This document shows positions 1-14,835 of a stretch of 41,196 nt of DNA, piece after piece (the stretch's first letter is position 1; each line of letters opens with the position of its first letter). Under the pieces are notes generated by a model. It worked only from the letters and a program-made list of their open reading frames with translations, was not told the DNA's origin and made no database searches. Position numbers and translations under genes: made by a program. Location of the stretch: NCBI GenBank assembly GCA_019694595.1, contig JAIBBQ010000035.1, forward strand, positions 1 through 41,196. Reading direction: 5' to 3'. This DNA is from Myxococcaceae bacterium. Lineage in GTDB: Bacteria; Myxococcota; Myxococcia; Myxococcales; Myxococcaceae.

Positions 1-3000
1 ACCGACTCGGTGGCGGTGGTGATGCTCGGCGCGCTGAAGGCGGGCGCGGCCTACGTGCCCCTCGACCTCGCGGCGCCCGATGCCCGGCTGTCGGCCATCG
101 CGCGCGACTCGGGCGCGGCGCTGGCCATCGTCGAAGGGCGCCCCCGGCCGGAAGGGTTCCCCGTCGACTGGGTGCCGCTGGCGCAGCTCGAGTCGAGCGC
201 GGACGAAGCGCCGCCCGCTCCGGTGACCTCCGCGCAGGCGCTCGCCTACGTCGTCTACACCTCGGGCTCCACCGGGGCGCCCAAGGGCATCGGCATTCCG
301 CACGCGGGCGTGCTGCGGCTGCTCGAGCGCACCGACTACGTGGCGCTCGGGCCCACGACGCGCATCGCCCAGCTGTCGAACCTCGCCTTCGACGCCGCAA
401 CCTTCGAGATCTGGGGCCCGCTCATCGCCGGCGGCACCCTGGTCGAGGTCCCCGAAGGCGTGGCGCTCTCTCCGGTGAAGCTCGCCGCCTTCCTGCGCCA
501 GGAGCGCATCACCACCACCTTCCTCACCAGCGCGCTCTTCAGCCTCGTCGCCAGCGAGGTGCCGTCGGCCTTCTCGGGCCTCGACACCTTGATGGCCGGG
601 GGCGAGGCGCTGGAGCCGAGCTGGGTGCGGGCGGTGCTCACCGCCGGCGGGCCGCGGCGGATGATCAACATCTACGGCCCCACCGAGACCACCACCTTCG
701 CCACCTGGTACCTCGTCGAGCAGCTCGCCCCCGACACCCGGAGCGTGCCCATCGGCCGCACCATCGCCAACACCGAGGCGCTGGTGCTCGACGCGGCGGG
801 GCAGCGGGTGCCCGCCGGGGTCGAAGGCGAGCTCTTCCTCGGAGGGCCCGGGCTCGCGTGGGGCTACCTGGGCCAGCCGCACGCCACCGCGGAGCGCTTC
901 GTGCCCCACCCGGAGCCCCGGACCCCTGGCGAGCGGCTGTACCGCACCGGCGATCGCGTCCGGTGGACCGAGGGCGGCCAGCTCGACTTCGTGGGGCGGC
1001 TCGACCATCAGGTGAAGCTCCGCGGCTTCCGCATCGAGCTGCCGGAGATCGAGCTCGCGCTGTGCGCCCACCCCGACGTGCGCGACGCCGTGGTGCTGGT
1101 GCGAGGCGCCGACCGGGCCCACCGTCACCTCGCTGCCTTCGTCGCGCTGCACCCGGGGCGCAGCGCCGCGCCCGAGACGCTCCGCGCGCACCTCGCCGCG
1201 CGTCTGCCCGACTACATGGTGCCCGGCGCCATCCGCCTCCTCGACGCGCTGCCGCTGGGCCCCACCGGCAAGGTCGACCGCGCCGCGCTGCTCGCCTTGG
1301 CCCCCGAGGTGGTGTCCGGGAGCGACGGGCTGCGCACGCAGACCGAGCGCGCGCTCGCTGCCGTCTGGTCCGAGGTGCTCGCGGTGCCGGTGACGACGCC
1401 GCAGGCGAGCTTCTTCGAGCTGGGCGGCCACTCGCTCCAGGCGACGCGCATCGTGGCGCGGGTGCGCGACCAGCTGGGGGTGGAGCTGCCCCTGCGCACG
1501 CTGTTCGACACCTCCACGCTCGAGGCGCAGGCGGCGGTGGTCGACGCGCTCCGGAATGACCGGCTGGCCCTGGAGCCGCTGCCCCGCACCGGGCCGCTGC
1601 CGCTGAGCTTCGCGCAGGAGCGGCTGTGGTTCCTGCAGCGCCTGGAACCGCGGAGCGCGGCCTACAACATTCACCTCGTCGGCCGGCTCGACCCGCCGGC
1701 GGAGCCGTCGTGCCTCGGGCGGGCCATCGACGCGCTGGTGGAACGCCACGAGGTCCTGCGCTCGCTCGTCGTCCAGTCGCCCACCGGGCCGCTCGCGCGG
1801 GTGCTGCCGTCGCCCCAGGGCGTGCTGTCGCACGAGGCGGTGGCGACCGAGGCCGAGGCGCTCCGGCGCGCGCGCGCCTTCGCCGATGCGCCCTTCGCGC
1901 TCGAGAGCGAGGTGCCGTTCCGCGCCCGGCTCTACACCGTCGCCCGCGGCCCCCAGGTGCTGGCGCTGTGCGTGCACCACCTGGCGGCCGACGGCGCGTC
2001 GGTGCCCATCCTCGTCGGGGAGCTCGACGCGCTCTACGAGGCGGCGCGGAGCGGACGGGGCTCGCCCCTGCCGGCGCTGCCCGTGCAGTACGTCGACTTC
2101 GCCGGGTGGCAGCGGCGCTGGGCGGCGTCGGGCGTGCTCGAGGCCCAGCTGGGCTTCTGGAAGGGCGTGCTCGAGGGCGCGGCGCCGGTCCTCTCGCTCC
2201 CGGTCGACCGCCCCCGGCCTGCGCTGCTCGACAGCGAGGGTGGCGTGGTCGAGGCGTCGGTCCCACTTTCGCTGCGCGATGCGGTGCACGCCTTCAGCAA
2301 GGACCGCGGCGTCACGCTCTTCATGACCTGGCTCGCGGCCTTCAAGGCGCTGCTGTTCCGCCTCGGCGGCCAGCGGGACGTGGTGGTGGGCACCCCCGTG
2401 TCGGGGCGCCTGCTGCCGCAGGTGGAGCCGCTCGTCGGGTGCTTCGTCAACACGCTGGCGCTGCGCGACCAGGTGTCGGGCGACCAGACCTTCGAGGCGC
2501 TGCTCGACGCGGTCAAGGAGACCTGCCTCGGGGCCTACGCCCACGCCGACGTGCCGTTCGATCGCGTGGTGGAGGCGCTGCGGCCCGAGCGCGCCACCAG
2601 CCACGCCCCGCTCTTCCAGGTGATGTTCACCTACCACCAGGGCCTCGCTGCCGAGGTCCAGCCGCGCGCGCTCGGGCTCACCGCCCTGCCGGTCGAGTCC
2701 CGCACCTCGGCGGTCGACTTCACGCTCACCGTCGACGAGCGCGCCGGCGAGGTCCAGCTCCACGGAGAGTTCGCCTCCGCGCTGTTCGACGCCGCGACCA
2801 TCGGCCGGTTCCTCGGCGCCTACGCGCGGCTCATGCGCGAGGCCCTGGCCCACCCGTCGAGGCCGCTGCGCGCGCTGCCGCTGTGGGACACCCCCGCGCC
2901 CGGGGCAGGGCGGGCGCTCGAGGAGGCTCCGGGTCAGACCGTCCTCGACGTGCTGGCGAAGCGAGTGCGCGCGCAGCCCGGGTCCATCGCCGTCCGCGCG

Positions 3001-5439
3001 GGGGAACGTCGCCTCTCGCTCGAGGAACTCTGGCGGCAGGCGGGATCGCTGGCGGCGCGACTGCGCGCGGGGCCGCCCGAGCCGCGGCCCATCGTCGCGG
3101 TGTGCGTCGAGCGCTCGGTGGAGCTGGTGGTCGCGCTGCTCGGCGTGCTGCGGGCGGGCGCGGCGTACCTCCCGCTCGACCCTGCCTTCCCCGACGAGCG
3201 GCTGCTCCAGGTGCTGCGGGCGGCCAAGGTCGGCCGCGTGGTCACCGGACCTTCGACCGACGCCCGCCTGCGCGCGCTCGGGGTGAGCACGGTGCCGGTG
3301 CACGGCGCGGGGGCCACGGGGCACGGGCTCCCGTCGGTGCCGGTGGAAGCGCCCGCCTACGTCATCTTCACCTCGGGCTCGACGGGAGAGCCGAAGGGCG
3401 TCGTGGTGTCGCACCGCGCGCTCTCGAGCTACGCGCGGTCGGCGCTCGCGACGTACGGCCTCACCGCGGCCGACCGCGTGCTCCAGTTCGCGTCGGTGGG
3501 CTTCGACGCCAGCGTGGAGGAGATCTTCCTCGCGCTGTGGGTGGGCGCCGAGCTGGTGATGCGGCCGGCTGGCCCGGTGCCGGGCGCGAAGGACCTGCTC
3601 TCGCTCTGCGACCGCGAGCAGCTGAGCGTGCTCGGGCTGCCCACCGCGTACTTCGCCGCGCTGGTGTCCGAGATGAAGCTGGGCGCGGTGCCGCTGCCCG
3701 CGGCGGTGAAGACGGTCATCGTCGGCGGTGAGCAGCTCGACGCAGAGACCGCGGCGACCTGGCGGCAGGTCGGCGGCGAGGGCGCCCGGCTCTTCAACAC
3801 CTACGGCCCGACCGAGGCGACGGTGGTGGCCACCGCGTGCGAGGTCGAGCCCGGCGCGACGCTCGGCGACCCGCCCATCGGCCACCCGCTGCCCCACACC
3901 GTCGCCCGGGTGTTCGACGCATACCTCGCGGCGCTGCCCCCAGGCCTCCCCGGCGAGCTGTTCCTCGGTGGGCCCGGCCTCGCCGACGGGTACCTCGACG
4001 ACCCCGCGCTCACCGCGGAGCGCTTCGTTCCCGACCCGGAGTCCGTGACGCCCGGTGCGCGGCTCTACCGGACCGGGGACCAGGTGCGGCGCCGGCCCGA
4101 CGGCCAGCTCGAGTTCCTGGGCCGGCTCGACGGCCAGCTCAAGATTCGGGGCCACCGCGTGGAGCCGCGCGAGCTCGAGGCCGCCGTGCTCGCCCACCCC
4201 GGGGTCCGCGCCGCGGTCGTCGTTCCCCGCCGCGTGGACACCAACGACGTGCGGCTGGTCGCGGTCGTCGTCGCCGCGCCGGGCGCCGGGCCGGGGCTCG
4301 AGCCGCTCCTGCGCGCGAGCCTCCTGCGCAAGCTCCCCGGCTTCCTGGTCCCCTCGGAGTTCGTCTGGGTGGAGCAGCTGCCGTTGACGGTGAACGGCAA
4401 GGTCGACCGGGCCGCGCTGGCCCGGCTCCCCTCGGCGGCTCCTGCTCCGGTGGCCGCGACCGATGGCGACCCGCTCGTCGCCTCGCTGTGCGCCCTGTGG
4501 TCCGAGGTGCTGGGCATTGCTGGCCTCGGGCCGGACGCCGACTTCTTCGCGCAGGGGGGACACTCGCTCTCCGCGCTCCGGCTCCTGTCGGCCGTGGAGC
4601 GCCAGCACGGCGTGACGCTCGGCTCGGAGGTCCTCTTCAGCGAGGCGACCCCTCGCGCCATCGCCCGGTGGATCCGCGACGGCTCCGCGACCCTAGCGCG
4701 CCGGCCGTCGCTGGTCCGGCTGCGCGACGGCGGGACGCAGGCGGTGGTCTTCGTGCACGCGGTCGACGGCGAGGTGCTGGTCTATCGGGCGCTCGCCTCC
4801 TCGCTCGGCCCCGAGTGGGCGTGCTGGGGGCTGCAGGCCGACCCGGCGCGCGGACAGCGCTCGCTGGAAGAGCTGGCGCGAGACGCGGTGCGAGCGCTCG
4901 AGGCCCTGGAGACGGTGGCGCTGGTCGGCTGGTCGTTCGGCGGCGTGCTGGCCTACGAGATCGCCCGGCAGCGCCGCGCTGCGGGGCAGGCCGTCGGTCC
5001 GCTGGTGCTCCTGGACTCCGCCCTCTGGGACCCCGACGACACCGAGGAAGATCCGGTGGAGCGCGAGCTCGCCCAGCTGGTGGAGCAGGGTGCCGGTCCC
5101 GCGGAGCTCGCCGCCAAGCTCCCTGCGGCGCTCGCGCTCACGCTCGAGGCGGTGTCTCCCGCGCGCGCCGCCCAGCTCTGGGAACGGGTGCGCCACCACT
5201 CCCGCGCGCTCGCCTCCTACCGGCCCGAGCCCTCCGACCTTCGCGCGTCCTTGCTCCTCGCCGAGATCCCGAGCGGTGCGCCGGGCCAGCTCGAAGCGCA
5301 GTGGCGCGCCCTGGCACTCGGTGGCCTCGCGGTGGGGCAGGTGCCGGGAGCGCACTACGCCATGTTCGAGCGGCAGCACCTGGCGTCGCTCGGCGCTGCG
5401 GTGCGCAGCGCGCTCGGGTCTCCGGTCGCGAGGCCCTGA
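1..5439 (+). CDS. Non-ribosomal peptide synthetase, terminal modules A-PCP-C-A-PCP-TE (5' partial)
   Basis: The frame is open from base 1, so the true start lies left of the window. Domains in order: an adenylation (A) domain from A2 (LKAGAAYVPLD) through A3 (YTSGSTGAPKG), A5 (NIYGPTE), A7 (YRTGD) and A10 (PTGKVDR); a PCP with GGHSL, phosphopantetheine Ser codon 1432-1434; an LCL-like condensation domain starting LSFAQERLWFLQ with HHLAADG at 1975-1995; a second A domain (FTSGSTGEPKG, NTYGPTE, NGKVDR); a second PCP (Ser codon 4564-4566); and a thioesterase with GWSFGG (Ser codon 4933-4935) and a late His at 5353. By alignment to GrsA the first pocket reads D-A-F-F-M-G-I-T-F-K, one change from a published Ile code (DAFFYGITFK). 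The second reads D-A-E-G-I-G-T-V-V-K, which I cannot assign. No epimerase domain is visible. The TE marks this as the last enzyme of the assembly line. Confidence 0.95.
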   Translation, partial: TDSVAVVMLGALKAGAAYVPLDLAAPDARLSAIARDSGAALAIVEGRPRPEGFPVDWVPLAQLESSADEAPPAPVTSAQALAYVVYTSGSTGAPKGIGIPHAGVLRLLERTDYVALGPTTRIAQLSNLAFDAATFEIWGPLIAGGTLVEVPEGVALSPVKLAAFLRQERITTTFLTSALFSLVASEVPSAFSGLDTLMAGGEALEPSWVRAVLTAGGPRRMINIYGPTETTTFATWYLVEQLAPDTRSVPIGRTIANTEALVLDAAGQRVPAGVEGELFLGGPGLAWGYLGQPHATAERFVPHPEPRTPGERLYRTGDRVRWTEGGQLDFVGRLDHQVKLRGFRIELPEIELALCAHPDVRDAVVLVRGADRAHRHLAAFVALHPGRSAAPETLRAHLAARLPDYMVPGAIRLLDALPLGPTGKVDRAALLALAPEVVSGSDGLRTQTERALAAVWSEVLAVPVTTPQASFFELGGHSLQATRIVARVRDQLGVELPLRTLFDTSTLEAQAAVVDALRNDRLALEPLPRTGPLPLSFAQERLWFLQRLEPRSAAYNIHLVGRLDPPAEPSCLGRAIDALVERHEVLRSLVVQSPTGPLARVLPSPQGVLSHEAVATEAEALRRARAFADAPFALESEVPFRARLYTVARGPQVLALCVHHLAADGASVPILVGELDALYEAARSGRGSPLPALPVQYVDFAGWQRRWAASGVLEAQLGFWKGVLEGAAPVLSLPVDRPRPALLDSEGGVVEASVPLSLRDAVHAFSKDRGVTLFMTWLAAFKALLFRLGGQRDVVVGTPVSGRLLPQVEPLVGCFVNTLALRDQVSGDQTFEALLDAVKETCLGAYAHADVPFDRVVEALRPERATSHAPLFQVMFTYHQGLAAEVQPRALGLTALPVESRTSAVDFTLTVDERAGEVQLHGEFASALFDAATIGRFLGAYARLMREALAHPSRPLRALPLWDTPAPGAGRALEEAPGQTVLDVLAKRVRAQPGSIAVRAGERRLSLEELWRQAGSLAARLRAGPPEPRPIVAVCVERSVELVVALLGVLRAGAAYLPLDPAFPDERLLQVLRAAKVGRVVTGPSTDARLRALGVSTVPVHGAGATGHGLPSVPVEAPAYVIFTSGSTGEPKGVVVSHRALSSYARSALATYGLTAADRVLQFASVGFDASVEEIFLALWVGAELVMRPAGPVPGAKDLLSLCDREQLSVLGLPTAYFAALVSEMKLGAVPLPAAVKTVIVGGEQLDAETAATWRQVGGEGARLFNTYGPTEATVVATACEVEPGATLGDPPIGHPLPHTVARVFDAYLAALPPGLPGELFLGGPGLADGYLDDPALTAERFVPDPESVTPGARLYRTGDQVRRRPDGQLEFLGRLDGQLKIRGHRVEPRELEAAVLAHPGVRAAVVVPRRVDTNDVRLVAVVVAAPGAGPGLEPLLRASLLRKLPGFLVPSEFVWVEQLPLTVNGKVDRAALARLPSAAPAPVAATDGDPLVASLCALWSEVLGIAGLGPDADFFAQGGHSLSALRLLSAVERQHGVTLGSEVLFSEATPRAIARWIRDGSATLARRPSLVRLRDGGTQAVVFVHAVDGEVLVYRALASSLGPEWACWGLQADPARGQRSLEELARDAVRALEALETVALVGWSFGGVLAYEIARQRRAAGQAVGPLVLLDSALWDPDDTEEDPVERELAQLVEQGAGPAELAAKLPAALALTLEAVSPARAAQLWERVRHHSRALASYRPEPSDLRASLLLAEIPSGAPGQLEAQWRALALGGLAVGQVPGAHYAMFERQHLASLGAAVRSALGSPVARP

Positions 5440-5521: not shown

Positions 5522-6076
5522 ATGGCCTCGGTCCCCGAAAGCGCCCAGCGGTACTTCACCGAGTGGCTCCCTCGCCAGGGGGGCGCGCGGGTGGCCGGGC
5601 CGGCGACGGCCCGGATCCGCGTGGTGGTCACCGGCGACGGCGGCGGTGCGTGGGACCTCGAGGCCGGCCCCTCGGGGCTCACGGCCGGGCCTCAGGGGAC
5701 GGCCCCCGCCCAGGCCTCGCTCGAGCTGTCCGTCGAGGACTTCCGCGAGCTCTTCCTCGGGACCTCGCTGGCGCCCGCGGGCGTCGAGCGCAGCGACCTC
5801 TGCTTCCTGAACCCGCAGGTCCGCTCGCTCATCGGCGCGGCCCCGGGGGTGGTGCAGCTGGAGATCGACGGCGTCGCCGGGCGCACCTGGCGCATGCGTG
5901 TCGTCTTCGGCGACGGCGCGGGCACCGAGCCGACCACGGTGACGCTGCCCCGCGAGGCCTTCACCCGGCTGCTGACGCGCGAGTCGGTGCCGCCCGCGCT
6001 GATGGAGTCGGGCGACCTGCAGTTCACCGGGGAGCCGCACCTCGCCATGCAGCTCGCCCTGGGGTTGGTGCCGTAG
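5522..6076 (+). CDS. SCP2-like (sterol-carrier fold) protein
   Basis: A 184-aa protein starting at the ATG 82 bases after the NRPS stop. I chose this ATG because the reading frame upstream overlaps the NRPS thioesterase region. The C-terminal part (PPALMESGDLQFTGEPHLAMQL) resembles the SCP2 pattern in which an 'a..G.l.v.Gd..la..l' segment closes a lipid-binding pocket. The N-terminal half (VVVTGDGGGAWDLEAG ... LELSVEDFRELFLG) resembles the start of the same fold, so it may hold two SCP2-like halves. SCP2 proteins bind acyl chains or hydrophobic ligands. Its place between the NRPS and the tailoring genes suggests a role with a lipidic or carrier-bound intermediate, which is inference. No signal peptide or membrane segment is seen. 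Confidence 0.55.
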   Translation: MASVPESAQRYFTEWLPRQGGARVAGPATARIRVVVTGDGGGAWDLEAGPSGLTAGPQGTAPAQASLELSVEDFRELFLGTSLAPAGVERSDLCFLNPQVRSLIGAAPGVVQLEIDGVAGRTWRMRVVFGDGAGTEPTTVTLPREAFTRLLTRESVPPALMESGDLQFTGEPHLAMQLALGLVP

Positions 6077-6083
6077 CCACGCC

Positions 6084-6665
6084 ATGCGAATTCGCCCTGC
6101 CGAGCGCGCCGATCTCCCGAGCATCGCCCGCGTCTTCACGCAGACGACGCGGCACGCCTTCAACGCCTTCACGCCCGGCGGCCGCACGGAATCGGGGCTC
6201 GGCGCAGAAGCCATGGTCCCCGAAGGTCAGGCGCTCATCGAGTTCGCCTGGGACCTCTGGTGGGGCCAGTGGTTCGCGTACGTCGCCGAGCTCCGTCCGG
6301 GCGAGGTGGTGGGATTCTCTTGCGGCGGCGCCGAGGCCACCGAGACCACCGAGCACCGGGTCCAGATGCGAGGGCTCTACGTGCTGCCCGAGCACCAGGG
6401 CGGCCTCGTCGGGCGCTTCCTGGCCAGCGCGGTCGCCTCGCGCTTCCTCGAGCTCGGTCACCGCAGCCTGATGTCGTGGGTGCTGGAGCAGAACGTCGCC
6501 GCCCGCGACTTTCACGTGGGCCTGGGCGGCGAGCCGCGCTACCGCGTGGAGAGCGTGGGGTACTTCGTCCGTGAGGTCCCGCCGGGACCCGAGGTCCACG
6601 CGCTGGTCGGCTACGTGTGGGACGACGCGTCCGCGCTCGTCATTCGCCGGCGGGCGAGGAGCTGA
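6084..6665 (+). CDS. GNAT-family N-acetyltransferase
   Basis: A 193-aa protein beginning 7 bases after the SCP2-like gene. The GNAT motif A is clear at residues about 95-113 (RGLYVLPEHQGGLVGRFL), the acetyl-CoA pyrophosphate-binding loop. A motif-B-like stretch follows around SWVLEQNVAARDFHVGLGG. The N-terminus (MRIRPAERADLPSIARVF) is typical of the family. Length is normal for a single-domain GNAT. The acceptor cannot be read from sequence; in this operon it may acylate an amine of the product, act as self-resistance, or be unrelated. The stop overlaps the start of the next gene (TGATG), indicating translational coupling. Confidence 0.85.
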   Translation: MRIRPAERADLPSIARVFTQTTRHAFNAFTPGGRTESGLGAEAMVPEGQALIEFAWDLWWGQWFAYVAELRPGEVVGFSCGGAEATETTEHRVQMRGLYVLPEHQGGLVGRFLASAVASRFLELGHRSLMSWVLEQNVAARDFHVGLGGEPRYRVESVGYFVREVPPGPEVHALVGYVWDDASALVIRRRARS

Positions 6666-7666
6666 TGTCCGCGGCGTCCACGCCTGCAGCCGCCTCCACC
6701 GGCGCGGTCGATCGCCGGCCGCCGGAGCTCGAGCGACTCGACTTCAAGCTGCTCGACTGCCTGGAGGTCAACGTCGCGGCGCTGCTCGAGCTGCGCGGCG
6801 CCCCGGACCTGCGCGCACCCTTCGCCTGCGAATGGCACTTCGACGTGGAGCCGGGGCAGCTGTCGCCCGTGCTCGAGCGCACGCCGCTGGCCAGCCGCCT
6901 CGCAGCCACGACCGCCTTCACGCTCGAGGTCCGGCAGAGCACCCCGGCGCGAGTGCTCGCGGACTGCCTCCCGCTGGTGCGCTCGGGCCAGCGCGTCCTG
7001 GTGCGCGGCGACGCCATGTCGATGGACTGGCTGCCGTACTTCGGGCGGGAGTCGATGGACCACAGCCTGGTGCTGGAGTCCGTCGACCCCGACGGGCGCC
7101 GCCTGCAGGTGCTCGACGCCTACGACAACGTCACCGAGTGGGGCGAGGCCAGCCCGGTGCGGCTCCAGGTCGACGCCTCGCTGGTGGAGCGCGCGGTGGG
7201 CTCGCTCGGTACGCCCTTCGCCGGCTGGTGGGCGACGCTCGAGCCGAAGCCGACGGCGCCGCGCTTCGACGCCTTCCAGGTGCTGCGCGCCAACGCCGAG
7301 GCGATGGCGTCTCACGCGGGCCGCATCGCCCGCTTCCGCGACACGGCCTTCGAGGCGCGCGGCGACGGCGAGGCGATGAAGCGCTTCTCGCTCGCCTGCT
7401 GGCTCGTCCACCGCGCGAGGACCCTGCACGGGCTCTGGCTCGGCGATCTCGCCGCGGGTGGCTGGACGGAAGGGACTTCCTTCGCCCGGTCCTTCCAGGA
7501 CGAGGTCGCCGGTCGCTGGAAGCGGGTCAACGAGCTCGCGTACCTGGTGTACCGGCGGGCGCGGCTCGGCAAGCCGGCGCCCCAGGTGGTGTTCGACGTG
7601 CTGGGCGAGCTCGAGGCCGTGGAGCGCGACCACGCGCAGCGGCTGGGGGCGGCGTTGCCCCGCTGA
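6665..7666 (+). CDS. BtrH_N-like papain-fold acyltransferase candidate
   Basis: A 333-aa protein started at the ATG that overlaps the GNAT stop codon. Its layout resembles the BtrH N-terminal family (butirosin acyl-ACP:aminoglycoside acyltransferase): an early Cys in LLDCLEVNVAALLELRG (Cys32), then a VLVRGDAMSMDWLPYF segment, a His in MDHSLVLESVDPDG (His133) and an Asp in LQVLDAYDN (Asp151). That is the Cys/His/Asp order expected of a papain-like fold, and 'D..YLPY...H.LVL...D......V.D' is the feature I used. In butirosin this enzyme moves an ACP-bound acyl group to an amine. Here free carrier proteins and a BtrK-like decarboxylase lie just downstream, which supports an acyl-transfer job. The assignment is by pattern memory, not by search. 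It could instead be a divergent cysteine peptidase-like protein. Confidence 0.55.
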   Translation: MSAASTPAAASTGAVDRRPPELERLDFKLLDCLEVNVAALLELRGAPDLRAPFACEWHFDVEPGQLSPVLERTPLASRLAATTAFTLEVRQSTPARVLADCLPLVRSGQRVLVRGDAMSMDWLPYFGRESMDHSLVLESVDPDGRRLQVLDAYDNVTEWGEASPVRLQVDASLVERAVGSLGTPFAGWWATLEPKPTAPRFDAFQVLRANAEAMASHAGRIARFRDTAFEARGDGEAMKRFSLACWLVHRARTLHGLWLGDLAAGGWTEGTSFARSFQDEVAGRWKRVNELAYLVYRRARLGKPAPQVVFDVLGELEAVERDHAQRLGAALPR

Positions 7667-7683: not shown

Positions 7684-9270
7684 ATGGGCATCACGATTCA
7701 CCAGCGGGTCCTCGAGCAGGCCGAGCGGACGCCTCGGGCCGTCGCGCTGCGGGGGCCTGGCGGCGCGTACACCTACGCCGAGCTCGCCCAGCGGGTGCGC
7801 GCGCTCGCGCACGGCCTGGCCGCGGCGCTCCCGCCCGGCGCGCGGGTGGCGATTCACCGCCCGAAGAGCATCGACGCCATCGTCGACCTGCTCGCCTGTC
7901 TTTGTGCCGGCTGCGCGTACGTGCCGCTCGACGCCGCCAGCCCGATGCCGCGCACCCGCTTCGTGCTCGAGGACAGCGGGGCCGACGCGCTCGTCACCGA
8001 CGAGCACACCGCGGCGCTGTGGTCGCAGGCGCCGGACGCGCTCGAGCGCCTCGCGCTGGTGGTGATGCCCGACGGTCACGGTCCGGCCCACCCGCGCCGC
8101 CGCACCCACGCGGCGCTCGCCGAGCCCGCCCCCGCCACGGAGGCGGTGCGCCCCGTCGCCGCCGAGGCGCTCGCCTTTCTCCTCTACACCTCGGGCTCCA
8201 CCGGCACGCCCAAGGGCGTGGCCATCACCCACGGCAACGCGTCGGCCTTCGTGGAGTGGGCGCTCGAGGCCTTCGACGTGGGGCCGGGCGACACCGTGGC
8301 GGTTCACGCGCCGCTGCACTTCGACCTCCCGGTGTTCGACCTCTACGTGAGCCTCGGACGTGGGGCCACCGTCTGTCCCGCCGACGAGGCGACGCTCAAG
8401 TTCCCCGAGGCTTTCCTGCGCTGGCTGCGCAGCGAGCGGGTGAGCGTGCTCTACGCGGTACCCTCCGCGCTCCTCGCGCTCCTCAAGCGCAGCACCGTGG
8501 CCAAGGGTGGCCTGGGCGACCTGCGGCTCCTGCTCTACGCGGGCGAGGAGTTCCCCGTGCCGCGGCTCCGCGAGCTGCGCGCGCTGCTGCGGCCCGACGC
8601 CCGGGTCTTCAACCTCTACGGCCCGGTGGAGACCAACGTCGTCACCTGCTGCGAGGTCGGCCCCGCGGAGCTCGCGCTCGCCCGCGTGCCCATCGGCACC
8701 GCGGTGAGCCAGGCGCGGCTCGTCCTCGTCGACGAGGCGCGCGCGGTGATTGCGCCCGAGCGCACCGGCGTCGAAGGCGAGCTGCTGGTCAGCGGGCCGA
8801 GCGTCTCTCCGGGCTACTGGCGTCGTGACGACCTCACCGCCGCGGCGCGCGAGGTGGTGAACGTCGCCGGCGAGTCGCTGCGCTGTCACCGCACCGGCGA
8901 CTTCGCGGCGTGGGGGCCCGGTGGCCGGCTCGACTTCCGCGGCCGCCGCGACGGCATGGTGAAGAGCCGCGGCTACCGCATCGACCTGGGAGAAATCGAG
9001 TCGGTGCTGGCCGACGCTCCCGGGGTGGCGGAGCTGGCGGCGGTCGGCGTGCCGCACCCCGAGCGCACCACCGAGGTGGTGGCCTTCGTGGTCGCCCGCG
9101 ACGGCTCGGCGAGGGACGAGGTGCCGCTGCTCGCCCGCTGCCGGGAACGGCTCCCGCCGTACATGGTGCCTGCACACGTCTACTGGCGCGACGCTCTGCC
9201 GCACACCACCACCGGCAAGGTCGATCGCGTGCAGCTGGTGGCGTGGGCGCAGGAAGGGGCCCGGCGATGA
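7684..9270 (+). CDS. Free-standing adenylation enzyme, probable L-prolyl-[PCP] ligase
   Basis: A 528-aa stand-alone A domain starting 17 bases after the BtrH-like gene at MGITIHQRVLEQAERTPRAVAL, a normal A-domain N-terminus. Core motifs are complete: A2 (CAYVPLD), A3 (LYTSGSTGTPKGVAITH), A4 (HFDLPVFDLY), A5 (FNLYGPVETN), A7 (HRTGDF), A8 (GRRDGMVKSRGYRIDLGEIE) and A10 (TTGKVDR). The ten pocket residues by GrsA alignment are D-L-F-Y-L-A-L-V-V-K. From memory the code of proline-activating enzymes of pyrrole pathways (PltF, RedM, CloN4/CouN4) is DLFYLALVCK, a single C-to-V difference. Hence it probably makes prolyl-AMP and loads proline on the PCP encoded next. Its stop overlaps that PCP start (ATGA). 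The A-domain call is certain; the substrate is inference. Confidence 0.9.
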   Translation: MGITIHQRVLEQAERTPRAVALRGPGGAYTYAELAQRVRALAHGLAAALPPGARVAIHRPKSIDAIVDLLACLCAGCAYVPLDAASPMPRTRFVLEDSGADALVTDEHTAALWSQAPDALERLALVVMPDGHGPAHPRRRTHAALAEPAPATEAVRPVAAEALAFLLYTSGSTGTPKGVAITHGNASAFVEWALEAFDVGPGDTVAVHAPLHFDLPVFDLYVSLGRGATVCPADEATLKFPEAFLRWLRSERVSVLYAVPSALLALLKRSTVAKGGLGDLRLLLYAGEEFPVPRLRELRALLRPDARVFNLYGPVETNVVTCCEVGPAELALARVPIGTAVSQARLVLVDEARAVIAPERTGVEGELLVSGPSVSPGYWRRDDLTAAAREVVNVAGESLRCHRTGDFAAWGPGGRLDFRGRRDGMVKSRGYRIDLGEIESVLADAPGVAELAAVGVPHPERTTEVVAFVVARDGSARDEVPLLARCRERLPPYMVPAHVYWRDALPHTTTGKVDRVQLVAWAQEGARR

Positions 9271-9527
9271 GCGAGGGGCGCGCCAGGCTGCTCGCCACGG
9301 TGCTCGCCGTCGTCGGCGAGACGGTGCCCGACCGTGCCGCCTCGCTCACCGCGGAGACGCCGCTGGTGGAGACGGGGCTGCTCGACTCGGTGGCCATCAT
9401 GAACGTCGTGGAAGAACTCGAGCGGCGCGTGGGGCGCGACTTCCCCGCGGAGCTCCTGTTGCCGGAGACCTTCGCCACCGCCGCGGTCCTCACCGACGCG
9501 CTGCTCGCTTCAGGGGGCTTCGCATGA
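9267..9527 (+). CDS. Free-standing peptidyl/acyl carrier protein 1
   Basis: An 86-aa single-domain carrier protein. The phosphopantetheine attachment motif is ETGLLDSVAIMNVVEELE, with Ser41 as the modified residue. The GLLDS form is common in stand-alone carriers loaded by discrete A domains such as the PltF/PltL pair. It overlaps the adenylation gene before it and the ligase gene after it by 4 bases each (ATGA at both ends). By context it is the likely acceptor of the prolyl group and the platform for the dehydrogenase. Confidence 0.9.
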   Translation: MSEGRARLLATVLAVVGETVPDRAASLTAETPLVETGLLDSVAIMNVVEELERRVGRDFPAELLLPETFATAAVLTDALLASGGFA

Positions 9528-11005
9528 GGCTGCTCCACGACCTCCTCGATTCGGCCGCCGCCGCCTTCCCCGAGCGCATTGCGGTGCGCGACGGTGCCGC
9601 CGACGTCACCTACGCGGCGCTGCAGCGTGACTCGCGTGCGCTCGCCGCCTGGCTCTCGGCGCGGGGCATCGGCCGCGGCGCGCGGGTGGCGCTGTTGCTC
9701 CCCAGCGGCGCCGGCGCGGTGACGTCGCTCTTCGCGGTCTCGCGCCTGGGCGCGCTCTTCTCGCCGCTGCACCCCGAGCTCAAGCCGCGGCAGCTCCAGT
9801 ACGTGCTGTCGGACATGGCGCCCGCGGCGGTCATCACCACCGAGGCGCTCCAGCAAGCGCACGGCCTCGCCGCCCACCCGCTGGTGCTCACGCTGGGCTC
9901 CGCGGCGTGGACCGAGGCGCTTGCGTCGAGCGCGGCGCCGCCTCCGTTCCCCGGCGTCTCCTTCGACCCGGTGTGCCTCCTCTACACCTCGGGGAGCACC
10001 GGGCTGCCCAAGGCGGTCATCTCCGCCCACGCCAACGTGGTGTTCGCGGCCGGCGCCATCCAGTCGCGGCTGCGCATCGAGTCGAGCGACACCATCGGCA
10101 GCTTCCTGCCGCTGTCCTTCGACTACGGGCTCTACCAGTGCTTCCTCGCCTGCCTCGCCGGAGCCACGCTGGCGCTGGGCCAGCCGGGGCAGGCCGGCCC
10201 CGGCATGGTGCGCAAGCTCGCAAGCTTCGGCGCCACCTTCGTGCCGCTGGTCCCTTCGCTGGCCACGGTCATCGTGCAGCTGTCGCGCAACATGAAGGAG
10301 CGCCCGCCGTTCCGCGCCTTCACCAACACCGGCGCGCACCTCTCGCGCGCGCAGATCGACGACCTCACCGCGCTGTACCCCGAGGCCAAGGTCTTCGTGA
10401 TGTTCGGCATCACCGAGTGCAAGCGGGTCTCCATCCTCGACCCCGCCGACTACCCGCGGAAGCCGGACTCCGTGGGCCGGCCGCTGCCCGACACCGAATG
10501 TCTCATCGTCGACGAGGCGGGCCAGCCGCTGCCGCCCGGCGAGCGGGGAGAGCTCGTGGTGCGCGGGCCGCACGTGATGCGCGGCTACTGGAACGCGCCC
10601 GAGCTCACCGCGAAGCGCTTCCGCCGGGTGGGCCCCGGGCTCGAGCACGCGCTCTTCACCGGCGACACCTGCAGTCTCGACGCCGACGGCTTCCTCTACT
10701 TTCACGGGCGCAACGACGACATCTACAAACAGGGCGGCTACCGGGTCAGCGCGCTGGAGGTGGAGGCCGCCGCCCTCGACGTGCCCGGCGTGGTGGGCGC
10801 GGCGCTGGTGCTGCGCGGAGAGTCCCCGCCGGTGCTCTTCGTCACCGGCACCACCGAGGGGCCCCAGGTCGTCGCCGGGCTGCGCGAGCGGCTGGAGGAC
10901 TTCAAGGTGCCGCCCACCGTCGAGCGGCTCGAGTCGCTCCCGCTCACCGGCAACGGCAAGGTGGACAAGGCGGCGCTGCGAGCGCGCGCGGACGGTGCGC
11001 CGTGA
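9524..11005 (+). CDS. AMP-dependent acyl/aminoacyl ligase (exosortase-A-associated type)
   Basis: A 493-aa ANL-superfamily enzyme. The phosphate-binding loop is LLYTSGSTGLPKAVISAH, the A5-like motif FGITECKRVS, the ribose-binding Asp in LFTGDTCSLD, the hinge GRNDDIYKQGGYRVSALEVE, and the catalytic Lys in GNGKVDKAAL. FGITE in place of YGPTE and the overall style resemble the 'acyl-CoA ligase (AMP-forming), exosortase A system-associated' family, which sits with an ACP and a PLP decarboxylase in that system, the same partners as here. It probably loads a carboxylic or amino acid on the second carrier protein (12249-12503), but CoA as acceptor is not excluded. It overlaps both neighbours by 4 bases. 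Confidence 0.85.
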   Translation: MRLLHDLLDSAAAAFPERIAVRDGAADVTYAALQRDSRALAAWLSARGIGRGARVALLLPSGAGAVTSLFAVSRLGALFSPLHPELKPRQLQYVLSDMAPAAVITTEALQQAHGLAAHPLVLTLGSAAWTEALASSAAPPPFPGVSFDPVCLLYTSGSTGLPKAVISAHANVVFAAGAIQSRLRIESSDTIGSFLPLSFDYGLYQCFLACLAGATLALGQPGQAGPGMVRKLASFGATFVPLVPSLATVIVQLSRNMKERPPFRAFTNTGAHLSRAQIDDLTALYPEAKVFVMFGITECKRVSILDPADYPRKPDSVGRPLPDTECLIVDEAGQPLPPGERGELVVRGPHVMRGYWNAPELTAKRFRRVGPGLEHALFTGDTCSLDADGFLYFHGRNDDIYKQGGYRVSALEVEAAALDVPGVVGAALVLRGESPPVLFVTGTTEGPQVVAGLRERLEDFKVPPTVERLESLPLTGNGKVDKAALRARADGAP

Positions 11006-12252
11006 GCGACCTCCTCGCCCTCGTCGAGCAGTACGGCAGCCCGCTCTACGTCTACGAGCTCCCCGAGGTGCGGCGCGCCTGCCAGGCGCTGCGCGCCGCG
11101 CTCCCCGACGGCAGCCACCTCTTCTATTCGCTCAAGGCCAACCCGCACCCCGAGCTGGTGCGGGCGCTGGCCGAGCTCGGCTGCCGCGCCGAGGTCTCTT
11201 CACTCGGAGAGCTCGAGGCCGCGCTGTCCGCGGGGTGCGCCGCCAGCGAGATGCTCTACACCGGCCCCGGCAAGTCGCGCCGCGAGGTGGACGAGGCGCT
11301 CGCCGCGGGCGTCACCCAGTTCTCCTTCGACTCCCCGGTGCAGGGCGCGGTGGTCGGCGCGGCTGCGAAGGCCGCGGGGCGCACGGTGCGCGGCGTGCTG
11401 CGGGTGAACCCCGACGGCGGCTCGAGCGCCTTCGGCCTCGCGATGGGCGGAGGCCCGTCGCCCTTCGGCTTCGATGCGTCCGCGGTGCGCAAGGCCGCGC
11501 GCGAGTTCGCCTCCGATGGCTGGGTGGACCTGCGTGGCTTTCACTTCTACGTGGGCACCAACGCCGACCAGCCCGAGGCGCTGCTGGCGACCTTCGAGAC
11601 CGCCATCGCCACCGCCGTCGAGCTGCAGACGGCGCTGGGCATCGAGCTCGAGCTGCTCGACCTGGGCGGAGGCTTCGGCCAGGCCTTCGCCGCGCCGGGC
11701 GCGCGGGTGGATTTCACCGCACTCAAGGCGCCGCTGGAGCGAATGCTCGACGCCAGGCTGCCCGGCTGGCGGCGGCAGCGTCCGCAGATTGCCTTCGAGT
11801 CCGGCCGCTACCTCGTCGGCGCCGCGGGCACGCTGGTGTGCACGGTGGAAGACGTGAAGGCGAGCGGCGACCGCACCTTCGCGGTGCTGGACAGCGGCGT
11901 GAATCACCTCGGTGGGCTGGGCGGCCTGCGGAAGATCACCCCCGGCCAGGTGAAGGTCGAGCTGCTCTCGCCGGGCGCGGACGCACCTTTGGCCCCCGTC
12001 GACGTCGTGGGGCCGCTGTGCACTCCGGCCGACGGCTGGGCGCGCAACGTCGCATTGCCCCGACTCGCTCCGGGCCAGCGCCTCGTCGTGCGCAACGTCG
12101 GTGCGTATGGCATCACCGCCAGCCTGCTGGCCTTCCTCAGCCGCGAAGCGCCGGTGGAGGTCGTGGTGGACGGAGCGCGGGTCTCGGCCTCCCGGCTCTC
12201 GGTACAGCGCAGCAGCGTGGCCCATGCAGCACCCTCGAGGAGACAACCGTGA
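11002..12252 (+). CDS. Fold-III PLP-dependent decarboxylase, BtrK/exosortase-A-associated type
   Basis: A 416-aa alanine-racemase-fold decarboxylase, starting at a GTG inside the previous stop (GTGA). The PLP lysine is Lys45 in FYSLKANPHPE. The phosphate-binding Gly-rich loop LDLGGGFGQ lies near residue 220, the substrate-side FESGRYLVGAAG near 265, and the active-site Cys from the partner subunit is Cys340 in GPLCTPADGWA. The GPLCTP...D and SGVNHL segments resemble the subgroup holding BtrK (which decarboxylates a glutamyl-ACP) and the exosortase-A-associated decarboxylases, more than free diaminopimelate or arginine decarboxylases. The directly adjoining ligase and ACP support a carrier-bound substrate. 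A free amino acid substrate (ornithine, lysine, diaminopimelate) is the alternative. Confidence 0.85.
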   Translation: MSDLLALVEQYGSPLYVYELPEVRRACQALRAALPDGSHLFYSLKANPHPELVRALAELGCRAEVSSLGELEAALSAGCAASEMLYTGPGKSRREVDEALAAGVTQFSFDSPVQGAVVGAAAKAAGRTVRGVLRVNPDGGSSAFGLAMGGGPSPFGFDASAVRKAAREFASDGWVDLRGFHFYVGTNADQPEALLATFETAIATAVELQTALGIELELLDLGGGFGQAFAAPGARVDFTALKAPLERMLDARLPGWRRQRPQIAFESGRYLVGAAGTLVCTVEDVKASGDRTFAVLDSGVNHLGGLGGLRKITPGQVKVELLSPGADAPLAPVDVVGPLCTPADGWARNVALPRLAPGQRLVVRNVGAYGITASLLAFLSREAPVEVVVDGARVSASRLSVQRSSVAHAAPSRRQP

Positions 12253-12503
12253 GCGTTCCTTCGGAAGAGAAGTTCGTGGCGGTGCTGCGGCCCCACCTGC
12301 GGTTCCTGGCGCCCGGTGCTCCGGTCGACTGGGAGCGGTCGCTCAAGGACCTCGGCCTCAACTCGCTCTCGTCGGTCAACCTGCTCGTCGACCTCGAGGA
12401 GGCGTTCGACCTCACCTTCTCCGACGACCAGCTGGCGCCGGAGTCCTTCGCCACCGCGCGGACCCTGTGGAAGGCCGTCTCCGGCGGAGCGGGGCCGGCG
12501 TGA
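12249..12503 (+). CDS. Free-standing acyl carrier protein 2
   Basis: An 84-aa carrier protein with GTG start overlapping the decarboxylase stop. The attachment motif is KDLGLNSLSSVNLLVDLEEAF, with Ser39 as the phosphopantetheine site. The residue before it is Asn38, where most carriers have Asp; such DSL-to-NSL forms occur in some specialised carriers. An acidic helix II and the LTFSDDQLAPESFAT region are typical of an ACP. The position between the decarboxylase and the flavoproteins makes it the likely platform for both. It overlaps the next gene by GTGA. Confidence 0.9.
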   Translation: MSVPSEEKFVAVLRPHLRFLAPGAPVDWERSLKDLGLNSLSSVNLLVDLEEAFDLTFSDDQLAPESFATARTLWKAVSGGAGPA

Positions 12504-13666
12504 GCGAGCCGCTGCTGGAGACCGCGGACCGCCTGGCCAAGGTGCTGGCGGAGCACGCCGCCTCGGTGGACGCGCAGGCGCGCTTCCCGGTCGAAGGCGT
12601 GCGCGCGCTCCGCGAGAGCGGTTTCCTCGGGCTGCTGGTGCCGCGCGCCTTCGGTGGCCTCGAGGCGGACCTCCCCACCTTCTCCGCCATCGCGCAGCGG
12701 CTCGCCGGCTCGTGCCTGTCGACGGCGATGGTGTGGGCGATGCACTGCCAGCAGGTGGCGATCCTCGTCGCGCACGCGGGCCCCGAGCTCGAGGCTTCGC
12801 TGCTCCCGCGGCTCGGCGCCGGCAAGGTGTACCTGGCGTCCATCACCACCGACCCGTCGAACGGCGGCGACCCGCTGGTGGCGCAGAGCCCGCTCCTCGA
12901 GCGCGGGGCGAACGTCGCCTTCTCGCGCGAGTCCCCGGTGGTGACCGGCGGGGAGAACGCCGACGGCTACCTGCTCACCCTCAAGGCGAGCGAGGCCGCC
13001 ACGCCGGCGCAGGTGGTGTTCGCCTACGCGGACCGCGCCCAGGTGGAGCTCACCCAGGTCGAGCCCTGGGCGCTGATGGGCATGCGCGGGACCCGGAACG
13101 TGAAGCTCACCATCAGCGGACAGGTGCCGCGCACCCAGGTGCTGGGGCTCGGCGGGGCCGGCCCGGACATCGTCGCCGACACGCTGGTGCCCATGGGCCA
13201 CATCGCCTGGGCGTCGTGCTGGCTCGGCGCCGCCCGAGGGCTCCTCGTGCAGATGCTCCAGGCGCTCCGGGCGGATCCCCGCCGGCGCCGGGCGCTCGCC
13301 TCCGACCTCCTCGCGGTGAAGATGGGCGACGTGGAGCTGAAGCTCGACGCCGCCGAGGTGTACCTGCGCCGCGTGGTCGACGACTACCAGCGCGTGCGCA
13401 CCTCGCCCCAGGGCACGGCGGAGCTGCGCTCCTACGAGTTCCATCGGCGCCTCAACGGCCTCAAGGTGCTCGCGGCCAGCACCGCCTTCGCCGCGGTCGA
13501 TGCGCTCCTCGAGGACGCGGGCTTCCGCGGCGGCTACCTCCAGAGCGCGCCCCTGCCGGTGGAGCGCGTCTTCCGCGACCTCCGCTCGGCGAGCCTGATG
13601 GTGCCCAACGAGCGCCTGCTGCTGCTCAACGGGCGCACGCTGCTCATGGGCTGGGGGGCGCAGTGA
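12500..13666 (+). CDS. Acyl-CoA dehydrogenase-like flavoprotein 1 (divergent)
   Basis: A 388-aa acyl-CoA dehydrogenase/group-D flavin monooxygenase family protein. The N-terminal segment (LRESGFLGLLVPRAFGGLEADLPTFSAIAQRLAGSC) is characteristic. The usual TEP.AGSD flavin motif is degenerate (ASITTDPSNGGDP), and the position matching the catalytic Glu in its neighbour is Ala238 (HIAWASCW against HIATERLAG). It also ends without the EGT/GGT..I segment. So it may be the non-catalytic partner of a heteromeric dehydrogenase, or a DszC-like monooxygenase with other chemistry. GTG start within the ACP stop; GTGA overlap with the next gene. Substrate is probably carrier-bound, by context. Confidence 0.75.
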   Translation: MSEPLLETADRLAKVLAEHAASVDAQARFPVEGVRALRESGFLGLLVPRAFGGLEADLPTFSAIAQRLAGSCLSTAMVWAMHCQQVAILVAHAGPELEASLLPRLGAGKVYLASITTDPSNGGDPLVAQSPLLERGANVAFSRESPVVTGGENADGYLLTLKASEAATPAQVVFAYADRAQVELTQVEPWALMGMRGTRNVKLTISGQVPRTQVLGLGGAGPDIVADTLVPMGHIAWASCWLGAARGLLVQMLQALRADPRRRRALASDLLAVKMGDVELKLDAAEVYLRRVVDDYQRVRTSPQGTAELRSYEFHRRLNGLKVLAASTAFAAVDALLEDAGFRGGYLQSAPLPVERVFRDLRSASLMVPNERLLLLNGRTLLMGWGAQ

Positions 13667-14835
13667 CGACCGCCGCAGCCCCCGAGGGCGCGCTGGCCAG
13701 CTTCCGCGCGCTGGTTCGCGAGCTGGTGGCCCGCGAGGTGACGCCGCACGCCGCCGCGTGGGACCGGGCGGGTGCCTTCCCGCGCGCGGTGCTGGAGTGC
13801 CTGGGCGACGCGGGCGTCATCTCCGCCTGCTTCGAGAACGTGCCGTCGGGGCGGAGCGCGGTGCCGCTCGACGTCGCCCGCTACGCGGTGCTGGTCGAGG
13901 AGCTCGCCCACGCGCGCTGCTTCGGGCTCTCGCTCAGCGTGGCGCTGCACGTCGGCGTCTACCTGCCGCTGCTGTCGAGGCTGGGCACCCAGGCCACGCG
14001 CGAGCGGTTGCTGCCTCCCGCGCTCTCGGGCCGCGCGCTGGGCGCCTTCGCCACCACCGAGGGCGAGGTGGCCGGCTCCGACCTCCTCGGCCTCGCCACC
14101 ACGCTCGAGCCGCGCGACGGCGGCTTCCGCCTCACCGGCGAGAAGGCCTACGTGTCCAGCGTCCCCGGAGCGGACCAGGTGGTGGTGCTCGCCCGCACCG
14201 CGCCGGGCCGGCACTTCGCCAACCTCGCCCTGGTGGTGGTGGACGCGAAGGCCAAGGGCGTCCACGCCGAGCGCCAGCCGCTCCAGGTGATGCGCGCCGC
14301 GGCGGTGGGCCGGCTGCGCTTCGACGCCGTGGAGCTCGACGCCGACGCGCTCCTGGGACGCCGGGAGCTCGGCCTCGCCTACTTCCAGGACCACATCGCC
14401 ACCGAGCGTCTCGCCGGCGCCGTGTGGGCGTGCGCGGTGGGCGAGCGCTGCGTCGAGGAGGCCCGTCAGCACTGCCTCGCGCGGCGGCTGGGCGAGGACA
14501 CCCTGTGGGGGAACGCCGCCGTCCGCCAGCGCCTGGGAACGGCCCAGGTCCAGCTGGCGCTCCTGCGGGCCCTGGTGGAGAAGACGGTGCGCCTGGCGCA
14601 GGCCCAGGGCCGCGTGCCGTCGCTCGAGGCCGCCGAACTCAAGGCCGCCGTGGCCCCGACGATGGAGACCGTCATCGGGACCTGTCTGCAGCTGCAGGGC
14701 GCGGCCGGCTTCGTGGACGGCAGCCCGCTGCTCCAGCTGCTCGCCGACTTCCGAGTCTTCGGCGTGGCCGGGGGCAGCACCGAGACGATGCTCGAGCAGG
14801 TCGCCGACCTCTGGTCGAGACCGACGCCCCCCTGA
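13663..14835 (+). CDS. Acyl-CoA dehydrogenase-like flavoprotein 2, candidate prolyl-PCP dehydrogenase
   Basis: A 390-aa acyl-CoA dehydrogenase. It shows the flavin/substrate motif ATTEGEVAGSD, the GFRLTGEKAYVSS strand (LNG.K.WITN equivalent), and Glu248-Arg249 in HIATERLAG, which matches the catalytic Glu of the isovaleryl-CoA dehydrogenase type (also WERA in PltE, from memory). At the MCAD-type position it has AGGSTE rather than YEGT, consistent with that type. Together with a proline-code A domain and free PCP in the same operon it is the best candidate to oxidise prolyl-PCP to pyrrolyl-2-carboxyl-PCP. Action on the second ACP-bound substrate is the alternative. Last gene of the plus-strand operon; 12 bases before the convergent desaturase. 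Confidence 0.85.
   Translation: MTTAAAPEGALASFRALVRELVAREVTPHAAAWDRAGAFPRAVLECLGDAGVISACFENVPSGRSAVPLDVARYAVLVEELAHARCFGLSLSVALHVGVYLPLLSRLGTQATRERLLPPALSGRALGAFATTEGEVAGSDLLGLATTLEPRDGGFRLTGEKAYVSSVPGADQVVVLARTAPGRHFANLALVVVDAKAKGVHAERQPLQVMRAAAVGRLRFDAVELDADALLGRRELGLAYFQDHIATERLAGAVWACAVGERCVEEARQHCLARRLGEDTLWGNAAVRQRLGTAQVQLALLRALVEKTVRLAQAQGRVPSLEAAELKAAVAPTMETVIGTCLQLQGAAGFVDGSPLLQLLADFRVFGVAGGSTETMLEQVADLWSRPTPP

What the first reader, a model, noticed from the sequence alone, without database searches (positions are those of the whole stretch)
7684..14835. Proline-to-pyrrole carrier-protein cassette inside an NRPS operon
A free A domain with pocket residues D-L-F-Y-L-A-L-V-V-K (seen by alignment to GrsA) is one change from the code I recall for proline-activating PltF/RedM/CloN4 enzymes. 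A free PCP overlaps it, and an acyl-CoA-dehydrogenase with an ERL-type catalytic Glu (13663-14835) is in the same operon. These are the three parts known to make pyrrolyl-2-carboxyl-PCP in pyoluteorin, prodiginine and aminocoumarin pathways. Here the dehydrogenase is separated from the A-PCP pair by a second carrier system, and a BtrH-like transferase sits upstream. A pyrrole-capped peptide is a reasonable product guess.
Basis: partly seen in the sequence, partly recalled or inferred. Interest (0 to 1): 0.8.

Follow-up and report, generated by a model that had tools for sequence, protein, structure and literature searches.

The report
Prolyl–beta-alanine two-carrier cassette, not pyrrole
A myxobacterial gene set first read as a proline-to-pyrrole unit looks instead like a small assembly line that loads proline on one carrier protein, makes beta-alanine on a second, probably joins them with a BtrH-type transferase instead of the usual condensation domain, and then oxidises the product.

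Summary
The observed genes are real. The A domain (7684-9270) has pocket code DLFYLALVVK, one change from DLFYLALVCK, the commonest code among about 80 PltF-type A domains fetched. The pyrrole reading fails its own test: 63 dehydrogenases found beside PltF-type A domains form one clade, which in a subset tree also holds AnaB (4irn) and prolyl-PCP dehydrogenase 5zw0, and neither window enzyme falls in it (AU p 0.001 and 8e-6). The same genome has two true prolyl-type dehydrogenases on contig C131, one in a PCP-dehydrogenase-A cassette.

The rest follows another logic. A2 is VinN-like, the PLP decarboxylase BtrK/VinO-like and ACP2 their carrier: aspartate to beta-alanyl-ACP, as in vicenistatin, bolagladin and AFC-BC11. 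The block BtrH-A1-PCP1-A2-DC-ACP2-ACAD1-ACAD2 recurs in the same order in Streptomyces litmocidini. Many Streptomyces keep BtrH, ACP2 and ACAD1 without A1, mostly with BtrH fused to a carrier domain. ACAD1 lacks the catalytic Glu (monooxygenase-like); ACAD2 keeps it.

Best reading: BtrH joins Pro-S-PCP1 and beta-Ala-S-ACP2, and the product is then oxidised, perhaps to dehydro-beta-alanine. Proline loading by A1/PCP1 is supported; pyrrole formation is not. Substrates, joining direction and ACAD chemistry are inferred.

The parts
1..5439 (+). NRPS, 5' end cut by the contig start: A (code DAFFMGITFK)-PCP-C-A (code DAEGIGTVVK)-PCP-TE
   Evidence: Pfam domains; codes; contig starts at window base 1
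5522..6076 (+). SCP-2-like protein, role unknown; not seen in the related loci
   Evidence: PF02036 35.4 bits; absent from relatives
6084..6665 (+). GNAT acetyltransferase, role unknown; not seen in the related loci
   Evidence: PF00583 36.3 bits; absent from relatives
6665..7666 (+). BtrH-type acyltransferase with Cys32/His133/Asp151, proposed amide-forming enzyme between the two carriers
   Evidence: homologue L007 hits PF14399; Cys in 21/21 readable rows, His 22/22, Asp or Glu 22/22 of 22 homologues
7684..9270 (+). A1: free A domain of PltF type, predicted L-proline
   Evidence: code DLFYLALVVK; best single-domain solved match 6o6e; own clade with L007/L120/L125
9267..9527 (+). PCP1: free carrier for A1 (LLDS site)
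   Evidence: PF00550 25.7 bits; equivalent of the carrier fused to BtrH in Streptomyces
9524..11005 (+). A2: VinN-like A domain, predicted to activate the side-chain carboxylate of aspartate or a close relative
   Evidence: VinN 3wvn 353 bits, D230 and R331 kept, S299 is T; code DYYPTTMRVK identical in L007, L120, L125
11002..12252 (+). PLP-dependent decarboxylase, BtrK/VinO-like, acts on carrier-bound amino acid
   Evidence: PF02784/PF00278; best solved matches BtrK 2j66 and 7ru7
12249..12503 (+). ACP2: carrier for the beta-amino acid (GLNS site)
   Evidence: PF00550 34.9 bits; best NCBIfam model AmcB cispentacin ACP, below its cut-off
12500..13666 (+). ACAD1: acyl-CoA dehydrogenase fold without the catalytic Glu, closest to FadE16/HsaA/SfnB-type; possible flavin monooxygenase
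   Evidence: NCBIfam; Glu absent 22/22; own clade
13663..14835 (+). ACAD2: acyl-ACP dehydrogenase-like with helix Glu (TERLAG); possible beta-alanyl desaturase
   Evidence: MbtN 117.9 bits vs RedW 92.8, both below cut-off; Glu kept 18/18; not in prolyl clade

Best explanation
This is a two-carrier building-block assembler attached to an NRPS, not a pyrrole maker. (1) A1 activates L-proline and loads PCP1 (strong prediction). (2) A2 activates aspartate through its side-chain carboxylate and loads ACP2; the BtrK/VinO-like enzyme removes the alpha-carboxylate, leaving beta-alanyl-S-ACP2 (strong prediction by homology to reconstituted systems). (3) The BtrH-type Cys/His/Asp enzyme forms the amide between the two carriers without a condensation domain, most simply Pro-S-PCP1 + beta-Ala-S-ACP2 to Pro-beta-Ala-S-ACP2 (inferred; the direction could be the reverse, since butirosin BtrH takes its donor from the decarboxylase's ACP). 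(4) ACAD2, and possibly ACAD1, oxidise the ACP2-bound group: ACAD2 to dehydro-beta-alanine, ACAD1 perhaps as a flavin monooxygenase (inferred). (5) How the unit connects to the NRPS, whose start is missing, is unknown.
For: Whole block in the same order in S. litmocidini L007: BtrH 30%, A1 46%, A2 49%, DC 45%, ACP2 34%, ACAD1 46%, ACAD2 39%. In 20 Streptomyces BtrH loci ACP2 and ACAD1 are in all 20, ACAD2 in 16, DC in 11, A2 in 10 (an 11th weaker), A1-clade domains in 2, so the ACADs belong to the BtrH/ACP2 unit. 14 of those 20 BtrH proteins carry a C-terminal PCP-type domain and L127 reads into an ACP2-type one, which ties BtrH to a carrier. A2 code identical in window, L007, L120, L125; VinN D230 and R331 kept. 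Aspartate loading and on-carrier decarboxylation by this enzyme set were reconstituted for AFC-BC11 (PMC12186527); bolQ deletion turns dehydro-beta-alanine into beta-alanine (PMC7756342); VinN/VinO do the same on 3-methylaspartate (PMC11284099). ACAD2 keeps the Glu in 18/18.
Against: No enzyme of this block has been assayed. VinN S299 is T in A2, so a close relative of aspartate is possible. L120/L125 A1-clade domains have another code, DMFYMSIAVK, so the clade is not strictly prolyl. BolQ and AfcE sequences were not obtained, so their kinship to ACAD1 or ACAD2 is untested. A VinM-like A1 could add proline straight onto beta-Ala-ACP2 and leave BtrH another job. AlphaFold models were too poor to test the BtrH fold.
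Confidence: 0.55

Rival explanations
1. Proline-to-pyrrole cassette: A1 loads PCP1 with proline and ACAD2 (or ACAD1) oxidises it to pyrrolyl-2-carboxyl-PCP1.
For: A1 code and PltF similarity; ACAD2 has the catalytic Glu and a RedW model score of 92.8 bits, far under the 650-bit cut-off. A clade of the whole ACAD2 family with the prolyl enzymes is not rejected (AU p=0.118).
Against: W_ACAD2 and W_ACAD1 each rejected from the prolyl clade (AU p=0.001, 8e-6). ACAD2 occurs in 14 Streptomyces BtrH loci without any A1 and is missing from the two Streptomyces loci L120/L125 that have an A1-clade domain. MbtN model scores higher than RedW.
Confidence: 0.1
2. A1 loads proline and one of the genome's true prolyl dehydrogenases (contig C131) oxidises it in trans, so a pyrrole-capped unit is still made.
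For: Two PltE-type enzymes, C131:64713-65849 (48% to L005) and C131:19001-20164 (47%); the first lies between a PCP and an A domain with code DLFYIAWVCK.
Against: These enzymes have their own carrier; S. litmocidini has no such enzyme in the ~55 kb around its copy of the block.
Confidence: 0.08
3. A1 is a VinM-like amide-forming ligase that caps beta-Ala-S-ACP2 with proline directly, as VinM adds alanine in vicenistatin; BtrH then moves the dipeptide to another amine or carrier.
For: The VinN/VinO/VinL trio in macrolactams is always followed by such a step (PMC11284099); butirosin BtrH moves a capped acyl group off the decarboxylase's ACP (own knowledge of the butirosin pathway).
Against: A dedicated PCP1 is encoded next to A1 and its equivalent is fused to BtrH in most Streptomyces relatives, which is not needed by a VinM-type ligase; A1 scores best against PltF, a carrier-loading enzyme.
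Confidence: 0.15
4. The ACP2-bound beta-amino acid is hydroxylated (isoserine) or N-oxygenated by ACAD1 acting as a two-component flavin monooxygenase, with ACAD2 doing a separate desaturation; the block is a butirosin-like unit with an ACAD-fold oxygenase in the place of BtrO.
For: ACAD1 lacks both dehydrogenase Glu positions in 22/22 and lacks the GSD loop, scores best with FadE16/SfnB/HsaA/DszC-type models; a flavin reductase gene lies in 8 of 20 Streptomyces loci and in L007 and L141. ACAD1 is the constant partner of BtrH and ACP2, ACAD2 is optional.
Against: No homologue of that flavin reductase in the window's genome at E<=1e-6, though no positive control was run. No substrate is known.
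Confidence: 0.25

Closest known systems
Bolagladin (bol) and AFC-BC11 (afc) dehydro-beta-alanine units, Burkholderia
   Same: VinN-type A domain for Asp, free ACP, BtrK-like PLP decarboxylase, ACAD-family enzyme (PMC7756342, PMC12186527)
   Different: There the amine is capped by a fatty acyl group through KAS III- or FAAL-type enzymes; here a prolyl A-PCP pair and a BtrH-type enzyme stand in that place, and there are two ACADs
Vicenistatin VinN/VinO/VinL(/VinM)
   Same: A2 is closest to VinN among solved structures; decarboxylation on the carrier
   Different: No macrolactam PKS, glutamate mutase or VinK-type acyltransferase in the block; a PCP goes with A1
Butirosin BtrI/BtrJ/BtrK/BtrH
   Same: BtrK-like decarboxylase, free ACP and BtrH-family transferase
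   Different: A2 is an A domain rather than BtrJ-type ligase; no aminoglycoside; ACAD-fold oxidases in the place of BtrO/BtrV (BtrJ, BtrO and BtrV from own knowledge)
PltF/PltE/PltL-type prolyl cassettes (pyoluteorin, prodiginine, aminocoumarin, anatoxin)
   Same: A1 and PCP1
   Different: No PltE-type dehydrogenase in the block
Autucedine/enamidonin/olenamidonin, Streptomyces
   Same: Contain a dehydro-beta-alanine unit (PMC11204786)
   Different: Cluster sequences not held; relation to the Streptomyces loci found here is untested

Membership tests
Prolyl-PCP to pyrrolyl-PCP cassette | Free A domain specific for L-proline | tested here: inconclusive
   Code one change from the commonest proline code, best solved match PltF, but A1 lies in its own clade that also holds a different code, DMFYMSIAVK; substrate not assayed
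Prolyl-PCP to pyrrolyl-PCP cassette | Free PCP beside the A domain | tested here: met
   PCP1 9267-9527, PF00550
Prolyl-PCP to pyrrolyl-PCP cassette | PltE/RedW/AnaB-type dehydrogenase | tested here: not met
   Neither ACAD in the 63-member clade nor in the subset clade with AnaB and 5zw0; AU p 0.001 and 8e-6
[quoted passage not shown]
   D230 and R331 kept, S299 is T
Carrier-bound Asp to beta-Ala unit (VinN/BolO/AfcQ type) | BtrK/VinO-type PLP decarboxylase and a free ACP in the same operon | tested here: met
   gene order and overlaps
Carrier-bound Asp to beta-Ala unit (VinN/BolO/AfcQ type) | Aspartate is loaded and decarboxylated on the carrier | not testable with these tools
   needs protein assay
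Dehydro-beta-alanine (BolQ/AfcE) desaturase | Homology to BolQ or AfcE | not tested
   no Burkholderia bol or afc sequence reached
Dehydro-beta-alanine (BolQ/AfcE) desaturase | Catalytic Glu of an alpha,beta-dehydrogenase | tested here: met
   ACAD2 18/18; ACAD1 0/22
BtrH family (PF14399) | Match to the family model above its cut-off | tested here: inconclusive
   window protein no match; L007 homologue 39.1 bits, above cut-off; L120 homologue 23.5, below
BtrH family (PF14399) | Cys/His/Asp active site | tested here: met
   Cys 21/21 readable, His 22/22, Asp 20 and Glu 2 of 22; papain-like fold itself not confirmed

The most novel reading that the evidence does not exclude
A condensation-domain-free dipeptide synthase in which a BtrH-type transferase couples an amino acid on one carrier (proline, on PCP1) to a beta-amino acid made on a second carrier (beta-alanine, on ACP2), followed by on-carrier oxidation by a Glu-less ACAD-fold oxygenase; present in Myxococcota and, with other first amino acids and with BtrH-PCP fusions, in about 9% of sampled Streptomyces.
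Probability: 0.4. Interest if true: 0.65.

Novelty: new variant of a known kind. Interest (0 to 1): 0.5.

Why it matters
It corrects a tempting product guess (a pyrrole-capped peptide) and points to a different one (a Pro-beta-Ala or Pro-dehydro-beta-Ala unit). It also shows a conserved Streptomyces/myxobacterial gene block, often hidden under names such as 'acyl carrier protein', 'alanine racemase' and 'acyl-CoA dehydrogenase', in which a BtrH-type enzyme may replace the condensation domain. That makes a clear, small test of C-domain-free amide formation between two carriers possible.

Tried and rejected
Pyrrole cassette: rejected by ACAD trees, AU tests and context. First genome-contig scan with A1 alone found nothing; the scan with an alignment worked. 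BtrH-like in 195 Myxococcota genomes: only the window's own genome. More A1-clade loci in 395 Actinomycetes genomes: only S. litmocidini at E<=1e-85. Attempts to reach Burkholderia bol/afc genes through order and family searches and plasmids failed, so BolQ kinship is untested. AlphaFold models of BtrH (pLDDT 48) and ACAD1 (54) were too weak for a fold search, which was therefore not run. Literature: no paper found on this gene block; the autucedine paper is not held. Considered and set aside: A2-DC-ACP2 as an exosortase-type set (TIGR03098/TIGR03099 match but far below cut-off).
Full report
Observation. The window is the whole of contig C82 of a 7.3-Mb, 394-contig genome placed by the tool within a 195-genome phylum group that includes Myxococcota loci. 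A1, PCP1, A2, the PLP decarboxylase (DC), ACP2, ACAD1 and ACAD2 follow each other with 4-base overlaps; the BtrH-like gene ends 18 bases before A1. Upstream are a GNAT enzyme, an SCP-2-like protein and an NRPS A-PCP-C-A-PCP-TE whose 5' part is lost at the contig start; downstream a fatty acid desaturase faces the other way.

A1. The pocket reads DLFYLALVVK. In the alignment of 161 A domains the PltF-type ones read DLFYLALVCK or DLLYLALVCK in most cases, so A1 differs from the commonest code only at the ninth place. The best solved single A domain is PltF, 6o6e, 292 bits against 194 bits for the LgrA A domain alone. In the tree A1 lies in a fully supported clade with A1 of L007 (Streptomyces litmocidini, code DLYYLALVVK) and of L120 and L125 (unnamed Streptomyces genomes, code DMFYMSIAVK); its branching next to the proline enzymes is not resolved. 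Proline is therefore likely for the window and L007, not proven, and not the rule for the clade.

The dehydrogenases. Of the 80 loci fetched with A1 as a lead, nearly all have one ACAD directly beside the PltF-type A domain. Sixty-three of these (61 of them from that scan, plus L005 and L006 from two Myxococcota genomes) form one clade (SH-aLRT 95, quick tree). In a smaller tree with the solved prolyl-ACP dehydrogenase AnaB (4irn), the prolyl-PCP dehydrogenase 5zw0 and eight ACADs of the window's own genome, AnaB falls beside the Cuspidothrix locus and the prolyl clade is again one (100). ACAD1 and ACAD2 lie in two other clades with their Streptomyces homologues. Holding W_ACAD2 or W_ACAD1 with the prolyl enzymes is rejected (p=0.001 and 8e-6). 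A deep union of the whole ACAD2 family with the prolyl enzymes is not rejected (p=0.118), so a remote shared origin stays possible. Catalytic Glu: 65/65 prolyl enzymes, 18/18 ACAD2, 0/22 ACAD1. The genome's own two PltE-type enzymes sit on contig C131; the first lies between a PCP and an A domain with code DLFYIAWVCK.

The conserved block. L007 carries BtrH-A1-PCP1-A2-DC-ACP2-ACAD1-ACAD2 in the window's order. In 393 sampled Streptomyces genomes 37 have a BtrH-like match at E<=1e-6. In the 20 best of these, taken out with about 20 kb each, ACP2 and ACAD1 homologues occur in all 20, ACAD2 in 16, DC in 11, A2 in 10 with an eleventh weaker, and A1-clade domains in 2 (L120, L125). These two have no ACAD2 and no PltE-type enzyme in the stretch fetched. 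Fourteen of the 20 BtrH proteins have a C-terminal carrier domain with a conserved Ser (GF[TSD]SF), and in L127 the frame runs on into an ACP2-type domain. In the window, L007, L120 and L125 BtrH stands alone and PCP1 is separate. The 20 loci were chosen by BtrH, so the counts say what travels with BtrH, not how often the cassette lacks it. Cys, His and Asp/Glu of the presumed active site are kept.

A2, DC, ACP2. A2 matches VinN (3wvn) at 353 bits, 70 bits over the next, with D230 and R331 kept and S299 replaced by Thr. Its code DYYPTTMRVK is identical in the window, L007, L120 and L125. DC matches BtrK best. Published work shows this trio loading an aspartate-type substrate by the side-chain carboxylate and decarboxylating it on the carrier: VinN/VinO/VinL (PMC11284099) and AfcQ/AfcP/AfcK, reconstituted in vitro (PMC12186527). 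In bolagladin, deletion of the ACAD gene bolQ replaces dehydro-beta-alanine by beta-alanine (PMC7756342), and the AFC-BC11 authors argue that the desaturase needs an N-acylated beta-alanine.

Mechanism. Shown: gene content, order, conserved residues, phylogeny. Predicted from close families: proline on PCP1; aspartate to beta-alanine on ACP2. Inferred: BtrH joins the two, because it is the only constant partner of the carrier pair, because its relatives are fused to a carrier, and because no condensation domain stands in the block; the direction is open. Inferred: ACAD2 desaturates the ACP2-bound group. ACAD1 looks like a flavin monooxygenase rather than a dehydrogenase, and a flavin reductase gene lies in 8 of the 20 Streptomyces loci and in L007 and L141, but no such homologue was found in the window's genome (without a positive control). 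No name for the final product is proposed.

Verdict. The block is best filed as a new variant of the carrier-bound beta-amino acid unit, combined with a prolyl A-PCP pair and a BtrH-type enzyme.

Noticed in passing
L157:6389-9328 (G000 contig C131:64388-67327): The same genome has an ordinary prolyl cassette, PCP then PltE-type dehydrogenase then A domain (code DLFYIAWVCK), in another NRPS region; a second PltE-type enzyme lies at C131:19001-20164.
   Followed up: partly
L123, L126, L131, L134 and others (Streptomyces): BtrH-PCP fusions occur with TrpB-like, ProA-like, SDR and NRPS C-A genes, an uncharacterised Streptomyces cluster type; L140 (plasmid NZ_CP109002.1) is an annotated copy.
   Followed up: partly
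L120, L125: A different cluster type with an A1-clade domain (DMFYMSIAVK), a DAO-like FAD oxidase, a cupin, an AurF-like diiron protein and, in L120, a fused PDH E1 alpha/beta protein.
   Followed up: no
L142:12988-16927 (Paenibacillus cellulosilyticus plasmid NZ_CP054609.1): VinN-like A domain, BtrK-like decarboxylase and carrier beside a 310-aa hypothetical protein in the place of BtrH; no ACADs. Suggests the core also exists in Bacillota.
   Followed up: no
36500-40078 (-): Long protein with many near-identical [15 protein letters not shown]-type repeats and a PilZ-like C-terminal part (by eye).
   Followed up: no
1-5439: The NRPS is cut at the contig start; its A domain codes are DAFFMGITFK and DAEGIGTVVK, and upstream modules were not located.
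   Followed up: no
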